Part shown: positions 50,534 through 60,908 of the stretch, piece after piece
Layout of the letters: each line of letters opens with the position of its first letter
Position numbering within the stretch: position 1 is the stretch's first letter
DNA from: Streptomyces triculaminicus
GTDB lineage: Bacteria > Actinomycetota > Actinomycetes > Streptomycetales > Streptomycetaceae
Direction of reading: 5' to 3'
NCBI RefSeq assembly: GCF_017349075.1
Contig: NZ_JAFMOF010000001.1
Span: forward strand, 1,612,001 to 1,676,000
DNA length: 64,000 bases
Position numbers and translations under genes: made by a program
Notes under the pieces: generated by a model
The model's input: the letters and a program-made list of their open reading frames with translations, nothing else
Databases searched by the model: none
Told to the model about the DNA's origin: nothing

Positions 50534-50878
50534 GTGGCGCAGAAGGTTCAGGTCCTTCTTGTCGACGACCTCAACGGCGGCGAGGCCGACGAGACCGTGA
50601 CGTTCGCCCTGGACGGCAAGTCCTACGAGATCGACCTCACCACCGACAACGCGGACAAGCTGCGTGAGGCGCTCGCGGACTACGTCAAGGCGGCCCGTCG
50701 TACCGGTGGCCGTACCGCCGGAGCCCGCGGCAAGGCCCGCGCCGGTGCCACCGCGGCCGCCGGCAGCCCGGACACCGCGAAGATCCGCGCCTGGGCCAAG
50801 GAGAACGGCTACAACGTGAACGACCGTGGCCGTGTCCCCGCCGAGATCCGCGAGGCGTACGAGAAGGCCAACGCCTGA
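50534..50878 (+). CDS. lsr2: Lsr2 nucleoid-associated protein
   Basis: A 114-residue xenogeneic silencer binding AT-rich DNA. The dimerisation domain (KVQVLLVDDLNGGEADETVTFALDGKSYEIDLT) and C-terminal DNA-binding domain (TAKIRAWAKENGYNVNDRGRVPAEIREAYEKA) with the RGR AT-hook-like loop are intact. GTG start. Its 3' end overlaps the convergent SCO3374-like gene by 70 bases. Confidence 0.97.
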   Translation: MAQKVQVLLVDDLNGGEADETVTFALDGKSYEIDLTTDNADKLREALADYVKAARRTGGRTAGARGKARAGATAAAGSPDTAKIRAWAKENGYNVNDRGRVPAEIREAYEKANA

Positions 50879-51579: not shown

Positions 51580-52079
51580 GAACGGTGCAACTGTGGAAAA
51601 CCCAAGAGGTTACGCTGGGTGGATAGTTGGGCACGCTCCGTATAAGAGGACAGGGGCGCACAGGCGCTCCGGATGGCGCGAGGGTGTTCGCCCGTAGCGG
51701 ATGGAAAAGCCCCGCGCCGCATGGAGTGTCAGTCCCCACGGGTAAGACATTCCCCGTGGGAAGAGGCTGTACAACGGGGCCCGGACCGCGTCATCAGGGG
51801 TGGCGGCGGGACCATGGACGGGCGTGTCGGCCCGGCCGGGCGTTCGCCATGGGCGTAGTGGTGGTGGGCGTATATGCCTGGCCTGCGGGAACATCGTCTC
51901 CCACCATCGGGTTGGAGGAGATGTCGGCTGTTCGGCAGCAGGTTCCCCGCCGGCGCGGGGGTGATCCGGACGGGTGTCGGCAGTTGGAATGAGCTGTCCC
52001 GCCCAGCGGGACTAGCATGCGGAAGGACAGGGAGGGGACCGACCCCTAACTGCCTGACCGCTCTGAGGAGCGATTAACG
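51580..52079 (+). promoter_or_regulatory. Long clpC upstream region with two ClgR-like sites
   Basis: This 500-base region has no credible gene. Two GTTCGC-N5-GCG elements, at 51686-51699 and 51842-51855, match the ClgR operator pattern known for actinobacterial clp genes (CGC-N5-GCG core). A perfect inverted repeat GTCCCGC/GCGGGAC (51996-52012) lies just before a TAGCAT box (52013-52018), a candidate -10. GAGGAG then lies nine bases before the clpC ATG. ClgR control is inferred. Confidence 0.6.
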
Positions 52080-54605
<2,526 letters not shown>

Positions 54606-54621
54606 CGAATAAGTGAGTGGG

Positions 54622-54668
54622 CCGGCCCCGGAACCGTGGAGACACGGTTCCGGGGCCGGTTTCGTTTT
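54622..54668 (+). terminator. Strong intrinsic terminator of clpC
   Basis: Arms 54622-54638 and 54643-54659 are perfectly complementary over 17 bases with loop GAGA, followed by TTTCGTTTT. It directly precedes the end of the convergent trypsin-NACHT gene at 54670. Confidence 0.92.
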
Positions 54669-54669
54669 G

Positions 54670-57519
54670 CTACGGACCGGACGGTTCTTTGTGGATCCGC
54701 AACCGGTCGCCGAAGCGGTCGGCGCCTACAACGGTTAGTTCCACTTCCGGGTCTAGGTTTACCTTCAATCCGTCGGCTGGCAAGGGACCTGTGTGGCCGG
54801 TCAGGTCGAGTACCACGGCGGCCCTCAGCCCCCACGCATTGAGGCTCAGCGAGCTCAGCCCTGGGAAGGCGGTCAGAAGACGCTCGTTGACCCGATCTCC
54901 CGGCTCCACCAGAAGCCTCACCGCGCCGACGTGGGGGAGCGGGGGAGCGGTGTCCAGGATGCGCAGGAGATCTGTCTCGAGTTCAAGCGTCCGCAGAGCT
55001 GAGCCACCCAATCCGGAGAGGTCCTCAAGGAAACAGCCCACGAGTGACAGGTCCTCGATCTCCGGGTGATCGGCCAGGAAGTCCAACGTCATGAGTGACG
55101 TGTTGTTCTCCAGGACGAGATCTCGCACCTGCCGGTCCCGAAAAGCTCGGCGAAGACTGTCCGACGAGTGGTTGCCGAAGACAATGAAGCCGCCGACAGG
55201 ACCGAGGGTCGGCAGGGGGGAAAGCTGCTCAGGAAGCATCATGGGAAGCGTGATGTCGTCAAGGCGCATGGTCGAGAGGATTTCGTCCGTGAACACGCGG
55301 GCGTCCGCAATGTGCCAGCAATCGGCGATCCGGGAGCGGACCCGGGCTGACTCGTGCTGCCCGTACTTCTGAAGCAGCGGAATACCCGCGTTCCCTAGGG
55401 AAGCAAGGACGTTCACCACTCCGCTCGCTTCTGCCGGGCCCAGCGCCGTCGGATCATCCGACAGGTACGGCAGCACCTCGGGGCCCAGAGTGGACAGAAG
55501 TTCCTCCTCGCCCTCCGAGAGCGGCGGCCCCAGGGCCCTCACTCCCTCCCACACCGCCTCATGCTGCGCGTCGTCCAGATAGACCGCGCTCATCGCACAT
55601 TCGGCCGCCAGGGTTCGCTGCGACCACAGCGTCTCGCGCTTGTCCGTCTCGTCGCCCGCCACGATGAGACCTGCGATGACCCGTCGCGCTTCCGCGCGGC
55701 CGCAGTGTCCTATGACCAGCCGGATGACGTCCTGCCACTGCTCCTCCGTCGCGTGCCCCAGGAGTTCGTCCAGGCTGTCGTTCTCCCGGAATTCCTTTGC
55801 CGCCAGGAAATCCTGGAAAGTGCGGTGGATGAATTGGATGGAATCCGCCGAGCGCTCCTGCAGAAGACCGCTGCGATTCAGGAGGTGGGTGAGCGTCTCG
55901 AGCGCCGTTCCTTGTTCCCGGACATGCCGCAGACCGTTCATGGCCCGCTCCAGCTGGCCCACGGCTTGGTCCCGGGACAGTTCGGCGCGGCCGCTGCGCA
56001 CCAGCCACACGGCAATGCGCTGCAGCAGTTGTCGGCCGTCGTCGACCGTCAGGTTCATGCCCTCGGGGGCGCCGATGCGGCGGTACGCGTCCCGGTTGCC
56101 CAGCAGCATGGACAGCGCGGCGTCGTACAGCTGCCATCGGGTGCGCGGCAGCAGGCCGCTGCGGCGGCGGTGCAGGGCGCAGATGACCGCGCACAGCAAA
56201 GGGGTGCGGGCCAGGTCGCGCAGGCCGGTGTTGCGGCGGAACTCCTGGGAGAGATCGCGTTCGAGCGCGGTGAGACGGGACCGTTCCTGCTCGGCGCGCG
56301 CCTTGTCCGCGTAGGCCCCGTACTCCAGCCGTGCCGCCTTGTGCCAGGCGGCGACGAATGACTGGATGCCGCCTTTGTTCATGGGCAGGAGCTGCAGCTC
56401 TTCGAAGCCCTCCGACTCCAGCCACGCGTGCTCGACGGCCAGCGGCCGCACGGTGACGAGGCAGCGGGTGTCCGGGTACATCCGCAGGAGCTGGGCGAGC
56501 CATCGCCGGGCGGGGTCGCGGTCGGTCTGGGGCAGCTCGTCCAGGCCGTCGAGCGCGCTCAGCTTCTCGGGCAGGGTGCGGCAGACGGCATGGGAGGCCA
56601 GCCACCACACCAGCGTGGTCTTGCCGGCGCCGGCCTCGCCCCGCAGGACGGTTCGGGGGCGGGAGCCGAGGAGATCCTCGATGCGTTGCCGTTCGGGCCG
56701 GAGTGAGGTCTCCGGGCCTGCCTTCCGCGCCTCGAGGCTCAGGTAGGCCGTGTCCAGGTCCCAGCTGTTCTCGTTCGTGCCCAGATCGTCGAGGCCGAAG
56801 ACCTCCATGCGGCTGTAGCGGGCCTTGATGGCCTTCGCGTACTGCTCCTCGTAGGCGAGGTCCTGGGGGTCGGGGCCGCTGAGTTCCTCGAGGGGCGGGG
56901 CGTCGGGCCAGTACTGCTTGAGCACCTCGGACAGCCCCTCGGCCAGGGCGCGCGCGATCGGCACGGCATCGATGACCGAGTGTTCCCAGCCCTGGGGGTC
57001 CTCGGTGGCGATTCCCAGCAGCACCGGTCCGGTGAAGAGCGGGCCGCCGGACAGGCCCGCCCAGGGGGATCGCGTGAAGGCTCCGGGCGGGTGGTGGTCG
57101 CTGTGCAGCACGTATCTGCCCCGCATCCGCCCGGACAGGGGCGTCAGCGTGCCCACGATCTGGGCGGCCTCCAGCTCGCCGCCCCGGTACCGCTGTACCT
57201 GCGGGAAGCCGAGTATCTGGCAGCCGGCCACCGGCTGCTTGGCGGCGAGGGTGCCCCAGCGCAGCGGCGGCAGGCGGTCGGCGGGAACCAGATCGCGCCG
57301 GGCCCGCAGGAGCGCGGCGTCGCAGCGGTCGGGGCGGCCGGCCCACAGGACTTCGCAGCTCACCGTGCCGGAGCCGCCGGGCGCGGCCGCCTCGGCGACC
57401 GCGTCGCGACTGAAGTCGACCATGTGGCTGCTGGTGAGGATCAGGTTCGGGGTCAGCAACACCCCACTGCCCTGCTGCGCGGCCAGCACCGCCACCAGCC
57501 GGTCCTCCACCGACCTCAT
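54670..57519 (-). CDS. Trypsin-NACHT-leucine-rich-repeat STAND protein (bacterial NLR-like)
   Basis: A 949-residue protein. Residues 1-190 are a trypsin-like protease with triad His32 (LTSSH), Asp67 (RCDAALL) and Ser157 (GLSGGP). A linker leads to a NACHT NTPase: Walker A GEAGAGKTT (294-302), Walker B LDGLDEL (323-329) and sensor CLVTVRP (about 353). Helical, HEAT-like regions follow (about 400-780), then leucine-rich-repeat-like units at about 798-900 (LEDLSLVGCF, LRTLELETD, LSSLSLNAW). Only about 23 residues separate Walker A from Walker B, far fewer than usual. The start overlaps the Trypco2-like gene by four bases. The family is linked to conflict or immunity systems; function here is inferred. 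Confidence 0.88.
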   Translation of the reverse strand: MRSVEDRLVAVLAAQQGSGVLLTPNLILTSSHMVDFSRDAVAEAAAPGGSGTVSCEVLWAGRPDRCDAALLRARRDLVPADRLPPLRWGTLAAKQPVAGCQILGFPQVQRYRGGELEAAQIVGTLTPLSGRMRGRYVLHSDHHPPGAFTRSPWAGLSGGPLFTGPVLLGIATEDPQGWEHSVIDAVPIARALAEGLSEVLKQYWPDAPPLEELSGPDPQDLAYEEQYAKAIKARYSRMEVFGLDDLGTNENSWDLDTAYLSLEARKAGPETSLRPERQRIEDLLGSRPRTVLRGEAGAGKTTLVWWLASHAVCRTLPEKLSALDGLDELPQTDRDPARRWLAQLLRMYPDTRCLVTVRPLAVEHAWLESEGFEELQLLPMNKGGIQSFVAAWHKAARLEYGAYADKARAEQERSRLTALERDLSQEFRRNTGLRDLARTPLLCAVICALHRRRSGLLPRTRWQLYDAALSMLLGNRDAYRRIGAPEGMNLTVDDGRQLLQRIAVWLVRSGRAELSRDQAVGQLERAMNGLRHVREQGTALETLTHLLNRSGLLQERSADSIQFIHRTFQDFLAAKEFRENDSLDELLGHATEEQWQDVIRLVIGHCGRAEARRVIAGLIVAGDETDKRETLWSQRTLAAECAMSAVYLDDAQHEAVWEGVRALGPPLSEGEEELLSTLGPEVLPYLSDDPTALGPAEASGVVNVLASLGNAGIPLLQKYGQHESARVRSRIADCWHIADARVFTDEILSTMRLDDITLPMMLPEQLSPLPTLGPVGGFIVFGNHSSDSLRRAFRDRQVRDLVLENNTSLMTLDFLADHPEIEDLSLVGCFLEDLSGLGGSALRTLELETDLLRILDTAPPLPHVGAVRLLVEPGDRVNERLLTAFPGLSSLSLNAWGLRAAVVLDLTGHTGPLPADGLKVNLDPEVELTVVGADRFGDRLRIHKEPSGP

Positions 57520-57857
57520 CGCTCAGCGGCTGGGCCGAACCCCGACAGCCCCGCCGCCCGGTCGTTGCCGACCTTCCAGCCGTCGCCCGTGTGCCGGTCC
57601 TTCGGTGTCAGGGTGAAGGCGACCCGGTGGGTGCGGGCCCTGGCGTGCGAGGCGTCCGCGCCGGCCTCGACGATCCAGGCCTTCACCTTGCCGCCCGCCT
57701 TGGCGTCGCGGCGCAGTTCCACCGTGAACTCCAGCGTGATGTCACCGACGTCGAAGGCGAGGTCCTCGCCGGCCCCGGCCGCCGCCGCGTCGGTCAGGCC
57801 CGCGCGGATCGCCCGCACCGCCTCCGCCAGCTCTATGTCCTCGAAACCGTTGCTCAC
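57516..57857 (-). CDS. Trypco2-like small protein, partner of the trypsin-NACHT protein
   Basis: A 113-residue protein: helix DIELAEAVRAIRAGLTDAAAAG then beta strands LAFDVGDITLEFTVELRRDA and GKVKAWIVEAGADAS, with a conserved THRVAFTLTPKD. This is the layout of trypsin-co-occurring domain 2 (Trypco2), found beside trypsin-like proteases in NTP-dependent conflict systems. GTG 57857 is chosen because GGGGGG lies upstream and the domain begins there. Its TGA overlaps the protease-NACHT ATG (ATGA), so the two are co-translated. Its role, possibly a regulator or substrate of the protease, is unknown. Confidence 0.82.
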   Translation of the reverse strand: MSNGFEDIELAEAVRAIRAGLTDAAAAGAGEDLAFDVGDITLEFTVELRRDAKAGGKVKAWIVEAGADASHARARTHRVAFTLTPKDRHTGDGWKVGNDRAAGLSGFGPAAER

Positions 57858-58195
57858 TGCGAGACCCCCCGCACGGTGCGTACATATCTGCCGCCCGGAG
57901 CGTACCGCCGATCTCGGGTCTCCGGTCCCGGAATGCGGGGTCCGGACCGGCCTCCGCGGTGACATGGGGCACAGGCCATTTCGGCGCTACTACGCCGCAT
58001 AGCGGAGAAGTCGATCTCGGGAATCACCCCGGAATTCCGGGGGAGGCGGCGGTCGGCCGTTCTCTGAATTCCGGATCCGGTTACGGCATCGGCTAGTAGG
58101 AGGGGCACTCGACACGACCGGGAAGCGCTGGTTACCAAGGTATGGCGATCCCGGCCCGCAGTCGGGACCTGTTTATTGCCTGGAGGTTTATCCGT
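57858..58195. promoter_or_regulatory. Divergent region between the Trypco2-like and M23 genes, palindrome-rich
   Basis: This 338-base gap has no convincing gene. It contains CGCTA-N10-TAGCG (57986-58005), the perfect palindrome CCCCGGAATTCCGGGG (58027-58042) and CCGGATCCGG (58071-58080). TAGTAG near 58094 could be a -10 box for the M23 gene with a leader of about 95 bases. Peptidoglycan-hydrolase genes in Streptomyces often carry a c-di-AMP riboswitch, but its conserved elements are not evident here. Confidence 0.45.
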
Positions 58196-58930
58196 ATGTC
58201 GAAGCGCACCGCTTTCCGTAACTCGAGCAAGGCCGTTCTCCGTACCCGTGCCGCCGTCGTGGCAGCCGGTCTGGGAGCCTCGGTCGCGCTGGGTTCCGGG
58301 GTCGCGCTCGCAGCCGACACCACCGCCACGGTGAGCGAGTTCCCCGCGTTCGCGTCCGTCGCCTCCCTGGGCGACTCGCTGAACACGCAGGCCGCCACCC
58401 AGCTGAAGGTGGCGGAGAAGGAGAAGCAGGCCGCCGAGCAGGCCAAGCGGGACGCCGCCAAGCGTGCCGATGAGGTCCGTAAGCAGGCCGAGGCCTCGCG
58501 TAAGCGTGCCGACGGCTGGGTCGCCCCCGTCGCCGGCTACCAGATCGGCCAGCCGTTCGGTAAGGCCGGTTCCATGTGGGCCCACAAGCACAGCGGCCAG
58601 GACCTCGTCGTGGGCACCGGCACCTCCGTCATGGCCGTTCACGGCGGTACGGTCGTCAAGGCCGGCCCCAACGGCGGCGGCGACGGTCCGGCGTACGGCA
58701 ACGCCATCGTGATCAAGCACGACGACAACACGTATTCGCAGTACGCCCACCTCTCGCAGGTGAAGGTGTCCGTCGGCCAGACCGTGACCACCGGCCAGGT
58801 GATCGGTCTCTCCGGCTCCACCGGCAACTCGTCCGGTCCCCACCTGCACTTCGAGATCCGCACCACCCCGAACTACGGCTCCGGCATCGAGCCCGTCGGC
58901 TTCATGAAGGCCCACGGCGAGAACCTCTGA
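58196..58930 (+). CDS. Secreted M23 peptidoglycan endopeptidase
   Basis: A 244-residue secreted enzyme. Signal peptide at 1-38 (basic start, hydrophobic core, cleavage near ALAADT); a coiled-coil-like region at about 70-100 (KVAEKEKQAAEQAKRDAAKRA); an LytM/M23 domain at about 125-235 with HSGQD (zinc His and Asp), and HLHFEIR holding the C-terminal zinc histidine, plus GNAIVIKHDDNTYSQYAHL. It cleaves peptide cross-bridges for wall growth. ATG 58196 follows GGAGG; an upstream in-frame ATG (58142) lacks a ribosome site. A 14-base hairpin follows. Confidence 0.93.
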   Translation: MSKRTAFRNSSKAVLRTRAAVVAAGLGASVALGSGVALAADTTATVSEFPAFASVASLGDSLNTQAATQLKVAEKEKQAAEQAKRDAAKRADEVRKQAEASRKRADGWVAPVAGYQIGQPFGKAGSMWAHKHSGQDLVVGTGTSVMAVHGGTVVKAGPNGGGDGPAYGNAIVIKHDDNTYSQYAHLSQVKVSVGQTVTTGQVIGLSGSTGNSSGPHLHFEIRTTPNYGSGIEPVGFMKAHGENL

Positions 58931-58977
58931 TCCCACCGGATCCGCCTCTGCACGGGCCACGGCCCGACAGCGTCACG

Positions 58978-59012
58978 AGCCGGCGCACCGCCTCACCCGC
59001 GGTGCGCCGGCT
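58978..59012. terminator. Hairpin between convergent genes
   Basis: AGCCGGCGCACCGC (58978-58991) pairs perfectly with GCGGTGCGCCGGCT (58999-59012), 14 bases with a 7-base loop, between the M23 gene and the convergent ABC permease gene. Confidence 0.85.
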
Positions 59013-59058
59013 TCGTCGTACGCGGTCGTACGCGAGCCCGGAAGCCCGCCGCGGCCGG

Positions 59059-59886
59059 CTACGTCCGGGCGCGGTAGGCCCGCATCGCCAGCGGCATGAA
59101 CACCGCCACGATGCCGGCCGCCCACGCCAGCGTCCACAGCACCGAGCTGCTCGACGCGTCGCCGAGCAGCAGCCCCCGGAAGGCGTCCGACAGGTGGGTG
59201 ACGGGGTTGAGGTGCACCCAGGCCTGCAGCCAGCCCGGCATGGTCTCCACCCGGACGAAGGCGCTGCTGGTGAACGTGATCGGGAAGATCAGGACGAAGG
59301 CGAAGACCTGCACCTTCTCGGCGTCGCCCGCCAGCATGCCGATCAGCACCGCGATCCAGGAGACGGCGGCGGCGAAGATCAGCAGCATCAGCGTGGCGCC
59401 CAGGAAGCCGCCCAGGCCGCCGGTGATCCGGAAGCCGAGGGCCACGCCCAGCGCGATCATCAGCAGCATCGCCCACAGCTGCTTGACGAGGTCGGCGGCG
59501 ATCCGGCCGAACAGCGGCGCCGACCGGGCGATGGGCAGGCTGCGCAGCCGGTCGAAGACGCCCTTGGTCAGATCGGTGTTCAGCGACATCGCGGTGTACG
59601 TGGTCATGAACAGCGTGTTCTGGACGATCACCCCGGCCAGCGCGTACCGCAGGTACTCCTCGGGGGAGCCCGCCATCTGTCCGCCGAACACGTAGGTGAA
59701 CAGGAACACGAACATGATCGGCGTGATGCTGTAGTCGACCAGCTCCAGGGGGTTGTGCTTGATGGACACCAGGCTCCGCCAGGCCAGCGTGGCGGTCTGC
59801 CGCAGCGCGTCCAGCGGGCGCACACGGCCGCTCCCGCGCAACCTGGGGGCGACGACCGGGGCGGGGGCCCGGCTCGCGGCGGTCAT
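59059..59886 (-). CDS. DrrB-type ABC exporter permease
   Basis: A 275-residue ABC-2 family permease with about six membrane segments and the conserved end MPGWLQAWVHLNPVTHLSDAFRGLLLG. It forms the membrane part of a drug or antibiotic exporter with the ATPase gene upstream, overlapping it by four bases (ATGA). Substrate unknown. Confidence 0.92.
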   Translation of the reverse strand: MTAASRAPAPVVAPRLRGSGRVRPLDALRQTATLAWRSLVSIKHNPLELVDYSITPIMFVFLFTYVFGGQMAGSPEEYLRYALAGVIVQNTLFMTTYTAMSLNTDLTKGVFDRLRSLPIARSAPLFGRIAADLVKQLWAMLLMIALGVALGFRITGGLGGFLGATLMLLIFAAAVSWIAVLIGMLAGDAEKVQVFAFVLIFPITFTSSAFVRVETMPGWLQAWVHLNPVTHLSDAFRGLLLGDASSSSVLWTLAWAAGIVAVFMPLAMRAYRART

Positions 59887-60908
59887 GACGGCCTCCCGCT
59901 GCCCGGCCCCCACCGGCAGGCCCCCGCCGCCCGGTGGCCCCCGCCCTCCGGCCTCTCCCCGTCCGGCCCCGTGCGGTGGCCGGTCAGGGCGAGGAACACC
60001 TCGTCCAGGGAGGAGCGGCGCAGGCTCAGCTCGCCGACCGCGATCGACGCCTGGTCCAGCCGCCGCACCACCGAGGGCATCAGCGCCGGGTCGTTGACGG
60101 GTGCGGTGATCTCGTCGCCCTCGATCCGGGCCTTCGGGCCCGCCGCCTCCGTGATCAGGGCGTGGGCGGTGGCCAGATCGGCCCGGTGCACCGGTCTGAG
60201 CTGGAGCACCTGCCCGCCGGCCTGCGATTTCAGCTGGTCCGGGGTGCCTTCGGCGATCACCTTGCCCCGGTCGATGACGACGATGTCGTCGGCGAGCCGG
60301 TCGGCCTCGTTCAGATACTGCGTGGTGAGCAGCGCGGTCACCCCGTCGGCGACCAGGCCGCGCAGCATGTCCCACAGCTCGCCGCGGCTGTGCGGGTCGA
60401 GTCCGGTGGTCGGCTCGTCGAGGAAGAGGACGCGCGGCCGGCCGACGAGGCTCGCCGCGAGGTCGAGGCGGCGGCGCATGCCGCCGGAGTACGTCTTGGC
60501 GGCCCGCGCGCCGGCGTCGGCGAGGTGGAAGCGCTCGAGCAGCTCTCTGGCGCGGGCGCGGGCGTCGGACCGGGTCATGCCCAGCAGGCGGCCGATCAGC
60601 AGCAGGTTCTCGGAGCCGGTCAGCTGTTCGTCGACGGCCGCGTACTGGCCGGTGAGCCCGACGACGGCGCGGACCCGGCCCGGCTCGCGCACGACGTCGT
60701 GGCCCGCGACCTCGGCCCGGCCGGCGTCGGGGCGCAGGAGGGTGGCGAAGATCCGTACGGCGGTGGTTTTGCCGGCGCCGTTGGGGCCGAGGAGGCCGAG
60801 GACGGTGCCGGGGCGCGCGGCCAGGTCGACCCCGGCCAGCGCCTGGGTCTCCTTGAACCGCTTCACCAGGGCCTCGGCCCGGATCGCGTACGTCATGGCG
60901 GTGGTCAT
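59883..60908 (-). CDS. DrrA-type ABC exporter ATP-binding protein
   Basis: A 341-residue ATPase of the daunorubicin-resistance type: Walker A LLGPNGAGKTTAVRI, signature YSGGMRRRLDLAASLV, Walker B VLFLDEPTTGLDPHSRGELW, H-loop TTQYLNEADRLADDI, and the extra C-terminal domain with SLRRSSLDEVFLALTGH that contacts the permease. AGGGGGACT precedes ATG 60908; ATG 60896 is also in frame. Likely a resistance or self-protection exporter; it lies just downstream of the cse operon but on its own. Confidence 0.93.
   Translation of the reverse strand: MTTAMTYAIRAEALVKRFKETQALAGVDLAARPGTVLGLLGPNGAGKTTAVRIFATLLRPDAGRAEVAGHDVVREPGRVRAVVGLTGQYAAVDEQLTGSENLLLIGRLLGMTRSDARARARELLERFHLADAGARAAKTYSGGMRRRLDLAASLVGRPRVLFLDEPTTGLDPHSRGELWDMLRGLVADGVTALLTTQYLNEADRLADDIVVIDRGKVIAEGTPDQLKSQAGGQVLQLRPVHRADLATAHALITEAAGPKARIEGDEITAPVNDPALMPSVVRRLDQASIAVGELSLRRSSLDEVFLALTGHRTGPDGERPEGGGHRAAGACRWGPGSGRPS

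What the first reader, a model, noticed from the sequence alone, without database searches (positions are those of the whole stretch)
54670..57857. NLR-like conflict system: Trypco2-like protein coupled to a trypsin-NACHT-LRR protein
Two co-translated genes (ATGA overlap) form an accessory unit between core genes clpC and an M23 peptidase. The large protein joins an active-looking trypsin protease (His32, Asp67, Ser157), a NACHT ATPase and C-terminal leucine-rich-repeat-like units, the domain plan of NLR immune receptors with a protease effector. Families pairing trypsin, NACHT and Trypco2 are recognised as bacterial NTP-dependent conflict systems, but few have been tested.
Basis: partly seen in the sequence, partly recalled or inferred. 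Interest (0 to 1): 0.8.

Follow-up and report, generated by a model that had tools for sequence, protein, structure and literature searches.

The report
Bacterial NLR-type receptor with broken switch
A Streptomyces gene pair resembling immune receptors of animals and plants sits in a chromosomal slot whose content differs between relatives, but this copy has lost the core of its ATP switch, so it is probably a natural dud of a known kind of system.

Summary
The two overlapping genes are real: Trypco2 (57516-57857) and a 949-aa protein (54670-57519) with an intact-looking trypsin triad, a NACHT match and a predicted LRR-like C-terminus. The NACHT ATPase is not intact. Walker A and Walker B lie 22 residues apart; 13 of 13 relatives have 76-78. 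A 165-bp in-frame deletion removed 55 residues, including beta-2 and the native Walker B strand; in the S. griseocarneus ortholog its ends carry an exact 11-bp direct repeat. AlphaFold2 builds a NACHT core for the S. cinnamoneus ortholog but not for the window protein, from the same 13 sequences. Likeliest: a natural loss-of-function allele of an NLR-like receptor.

The clpC-M23 slot is the more interesting part. In 98 Streptomyces genomes it holds trypsin-NACHT plus Trypco2 (16), NACHT without trypsin or Trypco2 match (37; 7 of 7 scanned carry NNH1), NACHT with Trypco2 (2) or no NACHT match (43, six uninformative). Genomes with similar M23 genes can differ in occupant, and C-terminal parts diverge more than NACHT. 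The window or the S. griseocarneus allele is recombinant. No function was tested.

The parts
57516..57857 (-). Trypco2 gene (113 aa, GTG start), the only Trypco2 match in its genome
   Evidence: PF19631 E 2.4e-29, over the cut-off; 1 match in the genome search
54670..57519 (-). trypsin - NACHT (core deleted) - LRR-like protein, 949 aa, ATGA overlap with Trypco2
56905..57519 (-). trypsin-like peptidase domain (residues 1-205; H32, D67, S157)
   Evidence: PF13365 E 2.4e-7; triad columns invariant in 13 aligned sequences; Foldseek match of the model to Rv3671c protease 3k6z
56200..56667 (-). remnant of the NACHT domain (residues 285-440); Walker A at 56617-56640 and Walker B at 56530-56550 kept, 55 residues between them missing
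56533..56553 (-). deletion junction; holds one copy of TCGACGGCCTG, which in the S. griseocarneus ortholog (L039) occurs at both ends of the missing 165 bp
   Evidence: DNA matches in relatives end near query 979 and resume near 968
55600..56199 (-). helical region after NACHT (residues 441-640; winged-helix/helical-domain region by position, inferred)
   Evidence: alignment, AF2 model
55270..55599 (-). helical-repeat-like region (residues 641-750)
   Evidence: AF2 model, block pLDDT 78-94
54673..55269 (-). LRR-like C-terminal region (residues 751-949), putative sensor
   Evidence: strand spacing 20-28 residues in the AF2 model; no Pfam LRR match in this copy
56320..56397 (-). approximate switch point (residues 375-400): upstream nearest to S. 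griseocarneus, downstream nearest to S. cinnamoneus; either the window or the S. griseocarneus allele is recombinant
   Evidence: informative-site counts
54623..54668 (.). GC-rich hairpin followed by a T-rich run between the convergent clpC and NLR genes, terminator-like
   Evidence: read directly in the sequence; no terminator program was run
52080..54605 (+). flanking core gene clpC

Best explanation
The locus is one allele of a chromosomal NLR-type receptor unit in Streptomyces. In intact orthologs (inferred, not shown) the C-terminal LRR-like region senses an invader-derived or stress signal, the NACHT ATPase switches and oligomerises the protein, and the N-terminal trypsin domain, probably with Trypco2 as its adapter, is activated and cleaves a target, leading to cell arrest or death. 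In this window a slippage-type 165-bp deletion removed beta-2, the helices after it and the native Walker B strand. The NTP switch is therefore most likely dead and the copy a natural loss-of-function allele, although the reading frame, the trypsin triad, Trypco2 and the sensor are still intact. Shown here: domains, deletion, conserved gene overlap, variable slot content, recombination at the locus. Inferred: sensing, activation, outcome, loss of function, and that the deletion is recent.
For: Domains. Walker A to B spacing 22 aa in the window against 76-78 aa in 13 of 13 relatives and 63-94 aa in the 53 of 55 slot proteins in which both motifs were found. Ends of the missing stretch in S. griseocarneus carry an exact 11-bp direct repeat. 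The missing segment is not elsewhere in the held assembly: the best matches are the three paralogs at 41-49% identity. AF2 from the same 13 sequences: window residues 216-406 at pLDDT <50 with no core sheet; L037 has strands at 294-298, 332-337, 379-384, 412-417 and 433-437, with 15 of 16 ten-residue blocks of 281-440 at 70-88. PDB top hits of the L037 model are NOD2, NLRC4 and NLRP3. Walker A and Walker B point mutants of the analogue LypB failed to complement (PMC13236601, passages). Trypco2 is called an adapter domain in PMC10907252 (passages).
Against: The rest of the protein shows no excess of private substitutions, so the deleted form could still be functional. [quoted passage not shown] The AF2 comparison rests on 13 sequences, and low confidence is not confined to the deleted copy: the L037 model is below 50 in parts of 519-640, where the window model is mostly above 60. 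The exact 11-bp repeat is found in 1 of 13 relatives; the others differ in one or both copies. No reads were available to exclude an assembly error. Anti-phage function is by analogy only.
Confidence: 0.68

Rival explanations
1. Intact, working trypsin-NACHT-LRR/Trypco2 conflict system.
For: Three domain profiles over their cut-offs, triad and Lys300 invariant; Walker B sequence DGLDELP retained; no excess private substitutions.
Against: 55 residues of the NACHT core missing, a spacing not seen in the relatives compared; the NACHT region has no core sheet in the model.
Confidence: 0.1
2. The deletion made an altered but useful protein: a protease with Trypco2 and sensor but without NTP switching, acting as a decoy, partner or dominant-negative regulator of other NACHT proteins in the cell.
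For: Frame, triad, Trypco2 and sensor kept; shortest terminal branch of the tree; three paralogs in the genome, two of which match from the trypsin domain on; LypA is a precedent for a Walker-less ATPase domain that is still needed (passages).
Against: No second genome with the deletion was seen (listed rows); the paralogs are 33-42% identical over the matched stretches; a recent null allele predicts the same sequence pattern.
Confidence: 0.14
3. Assembly or sequencing artefact: the real gene is full length.
For: Single assembly, no reads available; deletion seen in this genome only.
Against: A clean in-frame 165-bp deletion at a direct repeat looks like replication slippage; an 11-bp repeat is short for assembly collapse (established knowledge); the missing segment is not found elsewhere in the held 13 contigs.
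Confidence: 0.06
4. A housekeeping partner of ClpC or of the M23 peptidase rather than a conflict system.
For: Fixed position beside core genes: among 13 relatives clpC is found beside it in 12 and M23 in 12.
Against: 37 of 98 sites have M23 and no NACHT match, the occupant type varies, and against S. griseocarneus NLR and Trypco2 are far more diverged than clpC and M23.
Confidence: 0.02

Closest known systems
Trypsin/Trypco2 modules of NTP-dependent conflict systems (Kaur et al. 2020, PMC7159879; passages seen)
   Same: Trypco2 encoded next to a trypsin-like peptidase domain that is part of a larger NTPase-based system
   Different: The passages seen describe Trypco1/Trypco2 beside trypsin-bearing VMAP proteins of MoxR-vWA ternary systems; here the trypsin is fused to NACHT and an LRR-like region, and no MoxR or vWA gene was recognised among the neighbouring ORFs read by eye. 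Whether the paper's tables list this architecture was not checked.
bacterial NACHT proteins (bNACHT; PMC12169576, passages)
   Same: Tripartite plan: N-terminal effector, central NACHT, C-terminal sensor; the passages mention bacterial NACHT modules with leucine-rich repeats from earlier work
   Different: Trypsin effector plus Trypco2 partner; NACHT core deleted in this copy; no phage test
CARD-NLR systems such as LypABC (PMC13236601, passages)
   Same: Trypsin-like peptidase coupled to NLR-like ATPases; LypA joins a trypsin-like domain to a divergent ATPase domain without Walker residues, and peptidase-serine mutants lose lysis
   Different: There a CARD-like domain precedes the peptidase, and the sensor-like ATPase with TPR-like repeats (LypB) is a separate protein; here one polypeptide with LRR-like repeats, no CARD match, and Trypco2
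NNH1-NACHT proteins (Pfam PF22733)
   Same: Sit in the same clpC-M23 slot; slot genes are opposite to clpC in the 50 of 55 cases where this was determined
   Different: Helical NNH1 N-terminus instead of trypsin; the NACHT regions fall in a separate group

Membership tests
Trypco2 family | PF19631 match over the curated cut-off | tested here: met
   E 2.4e-29, 101.8 bits against 24.2
Trypco2 family | neighbouring trypsin-like peptidase | tested here: met
   PF13365 in the overlapping downstream gene; overlap kept in 10 of 11 relatives with a Trypco2 match
VMAP/MoxR-vWA ternary conflict system | MoxR AAA, vWA and VMAP genes alongside | tested here: inconclusive
   ORFs of 50-62 kb read by eye only; no profile search for MoxR, vWA or VMAP was run
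bacterial NACHT / NLR-related protein | complete NACHT NTPase core (Walker A, beta-2, Walker B strand) | tested here: not met
   55 core residues missing; better stretch starts at profile position 87; no core sheet in the model. Met in the L037 ortholog
bacterial NACHT / NLR-related protein | N-terminal effector domain | tested here: met
   trypsin-like domain with intact triad
bacterial NACHT / NLR-related protein | C-terminal LRR or other sensor | tested here: inconclusive
   LRR-like strand spacing in the model; no Pfam LRR match in this copy
bacterial NACHT / NLR-related protein | ligand-triggered oligomerisation and defence | not testable with these tools
   needs experiments
CARD-NLR | CARD-like domain | tested here: not met
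   no CARD profile among Pfam matches to E<=10; in the model the trypsin-like strands begin at residue 8

The most novel reading that the evidence does not exclude
The clpC-M23 slot is a fast-turnover receptor locus of Streptomyces, comparable in behaviour to plant resistance or fungal incompatibility loci: close relatives exchange whole receptors (trypsin type, NNH1 type, none) and recombine the sensor half inside a receptor. The window allele would be a receptor that kept protease, Trypco2 and sensor but works without an NTP switch.
Probability: 0.12. Interest if true: 0.75.

Novelty: new member of a known kind. Interest (0 to 1): 0.42.

Why it matters
It corrects the reading of this locus: a profile match over the cut-off hid a NACHT domain without its core, a warning for defence-system surveys based on domain hits alone. 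It also points to one fixed chromosomal slot where Streptomyces carry different NLR-type receptors and diverged sensors, which offers natural allele pairs (intact and switch-less, trypsin type and NNH1 type, present and absent) for testing what these receptors detect.

Tried and rejected
PADLOC and NCBIfam gave no assignment for the 949-aa protein (best E 0.026; antiphage_EruA E 2.7e-6, 25.8 bits against a cut-off of 1000). Rfam at gathering threshold on 52000-60000: 0 matches. Relaxed selection as a sign of decay was tested and not found. A recent N-terminal domain swap at the slot was considered: in the NACHT tree the 17 trypsin-type proteins (window included) and the 38 others form separate groups (midpoint-rooted FastTree, the 319-aa fragment L085 dropped before the run), so the slot occupants look like different old lineages. 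Against a simple story, the genome's own three paralogs, two of which match from the trypsin domain on, fall on the NNH1 side of that tree, so older N-terminal exchange in the wider family is possible. Deletion and recombination in one event was considered: the junction (residue 323) lies in the S. griseocarneus-like half, about 50-75 residues from the switch point, so this is not supported. Paper searches for Trypco2, NACHT with trypsin and Streptomyces, bNACHT, NNH1 and a clpC/NLR hotspot in Streptomyces listed no paper that I recognised as describing this slot; only listings, abstract starts and passages of four papers (PMC7159879, PMC10907252, PMC12169576, PMC13236601) were seen, and most subscription papers are not held, so this is no evidence of absence from print.

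Full report
What is there. Two overlapping minus-strand genes lie between clpC and an M23 peptidase gene. The first encodes Trypco2 (PF19631, E 2.4e-29). The second encodes 949 aa with Trypsin_2 (E 2.4e-7) and NACHT (E 1e-13) matches. Among the 13 named relatives, tblastn found clpC beside the NLR gene in 12 (not L046), M23 in 12 (not L047) and Trypco2 in 11 (not L047, L049). The gene overlap (ATGA or GTGA) is kept in 10 of those 11; L039 is the exception. Trypco2 has one match in the genome; NACHT has 10 matches, 9 over the cut-off, this one included.

The NACHT domain is broken. The NACHT match comes in two stretches, the better one covering positions 87-166 of 167, whereas 10 of 10 other proteins scanned (L037 and nine slot proteins) give one stretch from position 2-3 to 166. 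In the window Walker A and Walker B are 22 aa apart; in 13 of 13 relatives (L037-L049) they are 76-78 aa apart. Of 55 slot proteins 53 had both motifs, at 63-94 aa; two (L079, L085) gave no motif match. The difference from most relatives is 55 aa, 165 nt, in frame. In S. griseocarneus (L039) the sequence TCGACGGCCTG occurs at both ends of the missing stretch, and the window has one copy; in the other 12 relatives at least one of the two copies differs from it. In the protein search of 199 Streptomyces genomes the listed matches break at about query residue 317-330; one listed piece (G007) runs to 365, but its partner piece begins again at 320. In the DNA search of 392 genomes I saw no listed row, other than the window's own, that crosses query 968-979. 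In both searches further rows were not listed. The missing peptide is not elsewhere in the held assembly; the best matches are three paralogs at 41-49%.

Structure. AlphaFold2 was run on the window protein and on the S. cinnamoneus ortholog with the same 13 sequences. The window model has pLDDT under 50 over 216-406 (and 415-460) and no core sheet; the ortholog model has a five-strand NACHT core. Mean pLDDT was 68.5 and 73.7, pTM 0.49 and 0.42, so the domain arrangement is not reliable. Against a simple reading, the ortholog model is itself below 50 in parts of 519-640, where the window model is mostly above 60. Foldseek matched the ortholog model to NOD2, NLRC4 and NLRP3 and the window model to NAIP/NLRC4, NLRP1 and trypsin-like proteases; whole-length TM-scores to the NLRs are about 0.2. 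The C-terminal strands of the window model start 20-28 residues apart, as in LRRs.

Age and constraint. The window sequence carries 4 private substitutions at columns invariant in the other 12 (797 ungapped columns), the others 1-12; among the 8 nearest it has 11, the others 11-22 (840 columns); it has the shortest terminal branch. One private change is D384G. So the deletion is recent or the protein is still constrained; the data do not tell which.

The slot. The clpC end was sought in 101 genomes, and the region beyond it was fetched for 98 of the 100 other than the window's own (G001, with only a weak match, and G078, with the gene at a contig end, were left out). With tblastn at E<=1e-3: 16 of 98 had NACHT, trypsin, Trypco2 and M23 matches; 2 of 98 NACHT and Trypco2 but no trypsin match (L085, a decayed 319-aa fragment, and L151); 37 of 98 NACHT without trypsin or Trypco2 match (31 with M23, 6 without); 37 of 98 M23 only, with clpC and M23 matches 0.86-3.6 kb apart in the 36 where both were measured; 6 of 98 none of these, some of them contig ends. 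Divergent trypsin domains could be missed at this threshold. Of the 37 NACHT-only proteins 7 were scanned with Pfam and 7 carry NNH1, as does L151; the others were judged only by their N-terminal sequence. L092, trypsin type by tblastn, gave no Pfam trypsin match at E<=0.001. The two types separate in the NACHT tree.

Turnover and recombination. Against S. griseocarneus the window has dS 0.04 in clpC and 0.05 in M23, but 0.25 in Trypco2, 0.29-0.30 in trypsin, linker and NACHT, and 0.63, 0.86 and 1.54 in successive C-terminal parts (the last values are near saturation). Against S. cinnamoneus the contrast is weaker: clpC 0.14, M23 0.29, Trypco2 0.29, NLR parts 0.50-0.83. Sliding identity agrees. 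At informative sites, residues 1-375 favour S. griseocarneus 198 to 39, and residues 401-950 favour S. cinnamoneus 248 to 108, so either the window or the S. griseocarneus allele is recombinant. The alignment of the L039 C-terminus is poor, which weakens the second count. Of 39 pairs with the M23 fragment at least 93% identical, 2 are one genome met twice; occupants differ in 13 (3 trypsin type against other NACHT, one of them the decayed L085; 7 trypsin type against none; 3 other NACHT against none), or 11 after removing rows doubled by L048/L093. In 15 of 15 same-type pairs the C-terminal part is less conserved than NACHT, and in 13 of 15 it is the least conserved of three parts. M23 identity over a few hundred bases is only a proxy for relatedness.

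How it works, and standing. The most likely mechanism for intact members is sensor-triggered NACHT oligomerisation that activates the trypsin effector, with Trypco2 as adapter; every step is inferred from the families (passages). The window copy lacks a complete NTP switch and is probably inactive. As a kind this is known; the slot turnover is something I did not see described in the limited paper searches made.

Noticed in passing
   Followed up: partly
   Followed up: no
L047 and L049 (Streptomyces sp. ERV7 and CBMA152): Two NLR-type genes side by side next to clpC (second match about 32-34% identical) and no Trypco2 match.
   Followed up: no
L039 (S. griseocarneus) and L046 (Streptomyces sp. 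AV19): Orthologs with shortened C-termini (919 and 790 aa), L046 ending before the LRR-like part: further possible loss events at the locus.
   Followed up: no
G000:C7:1118873-1121050, G000:C8:72531-74750, G000:C1:860186-862624: Three paralogs with full-length NACHT matches in the same genome, in open frames of 1022, 1147 and 1062 aa.
   Followed up: partly
window 50534-50878: ORF that looks like Lsr2 (recalled resemblance, no search run), upstream of clpC.
   Followed up: no
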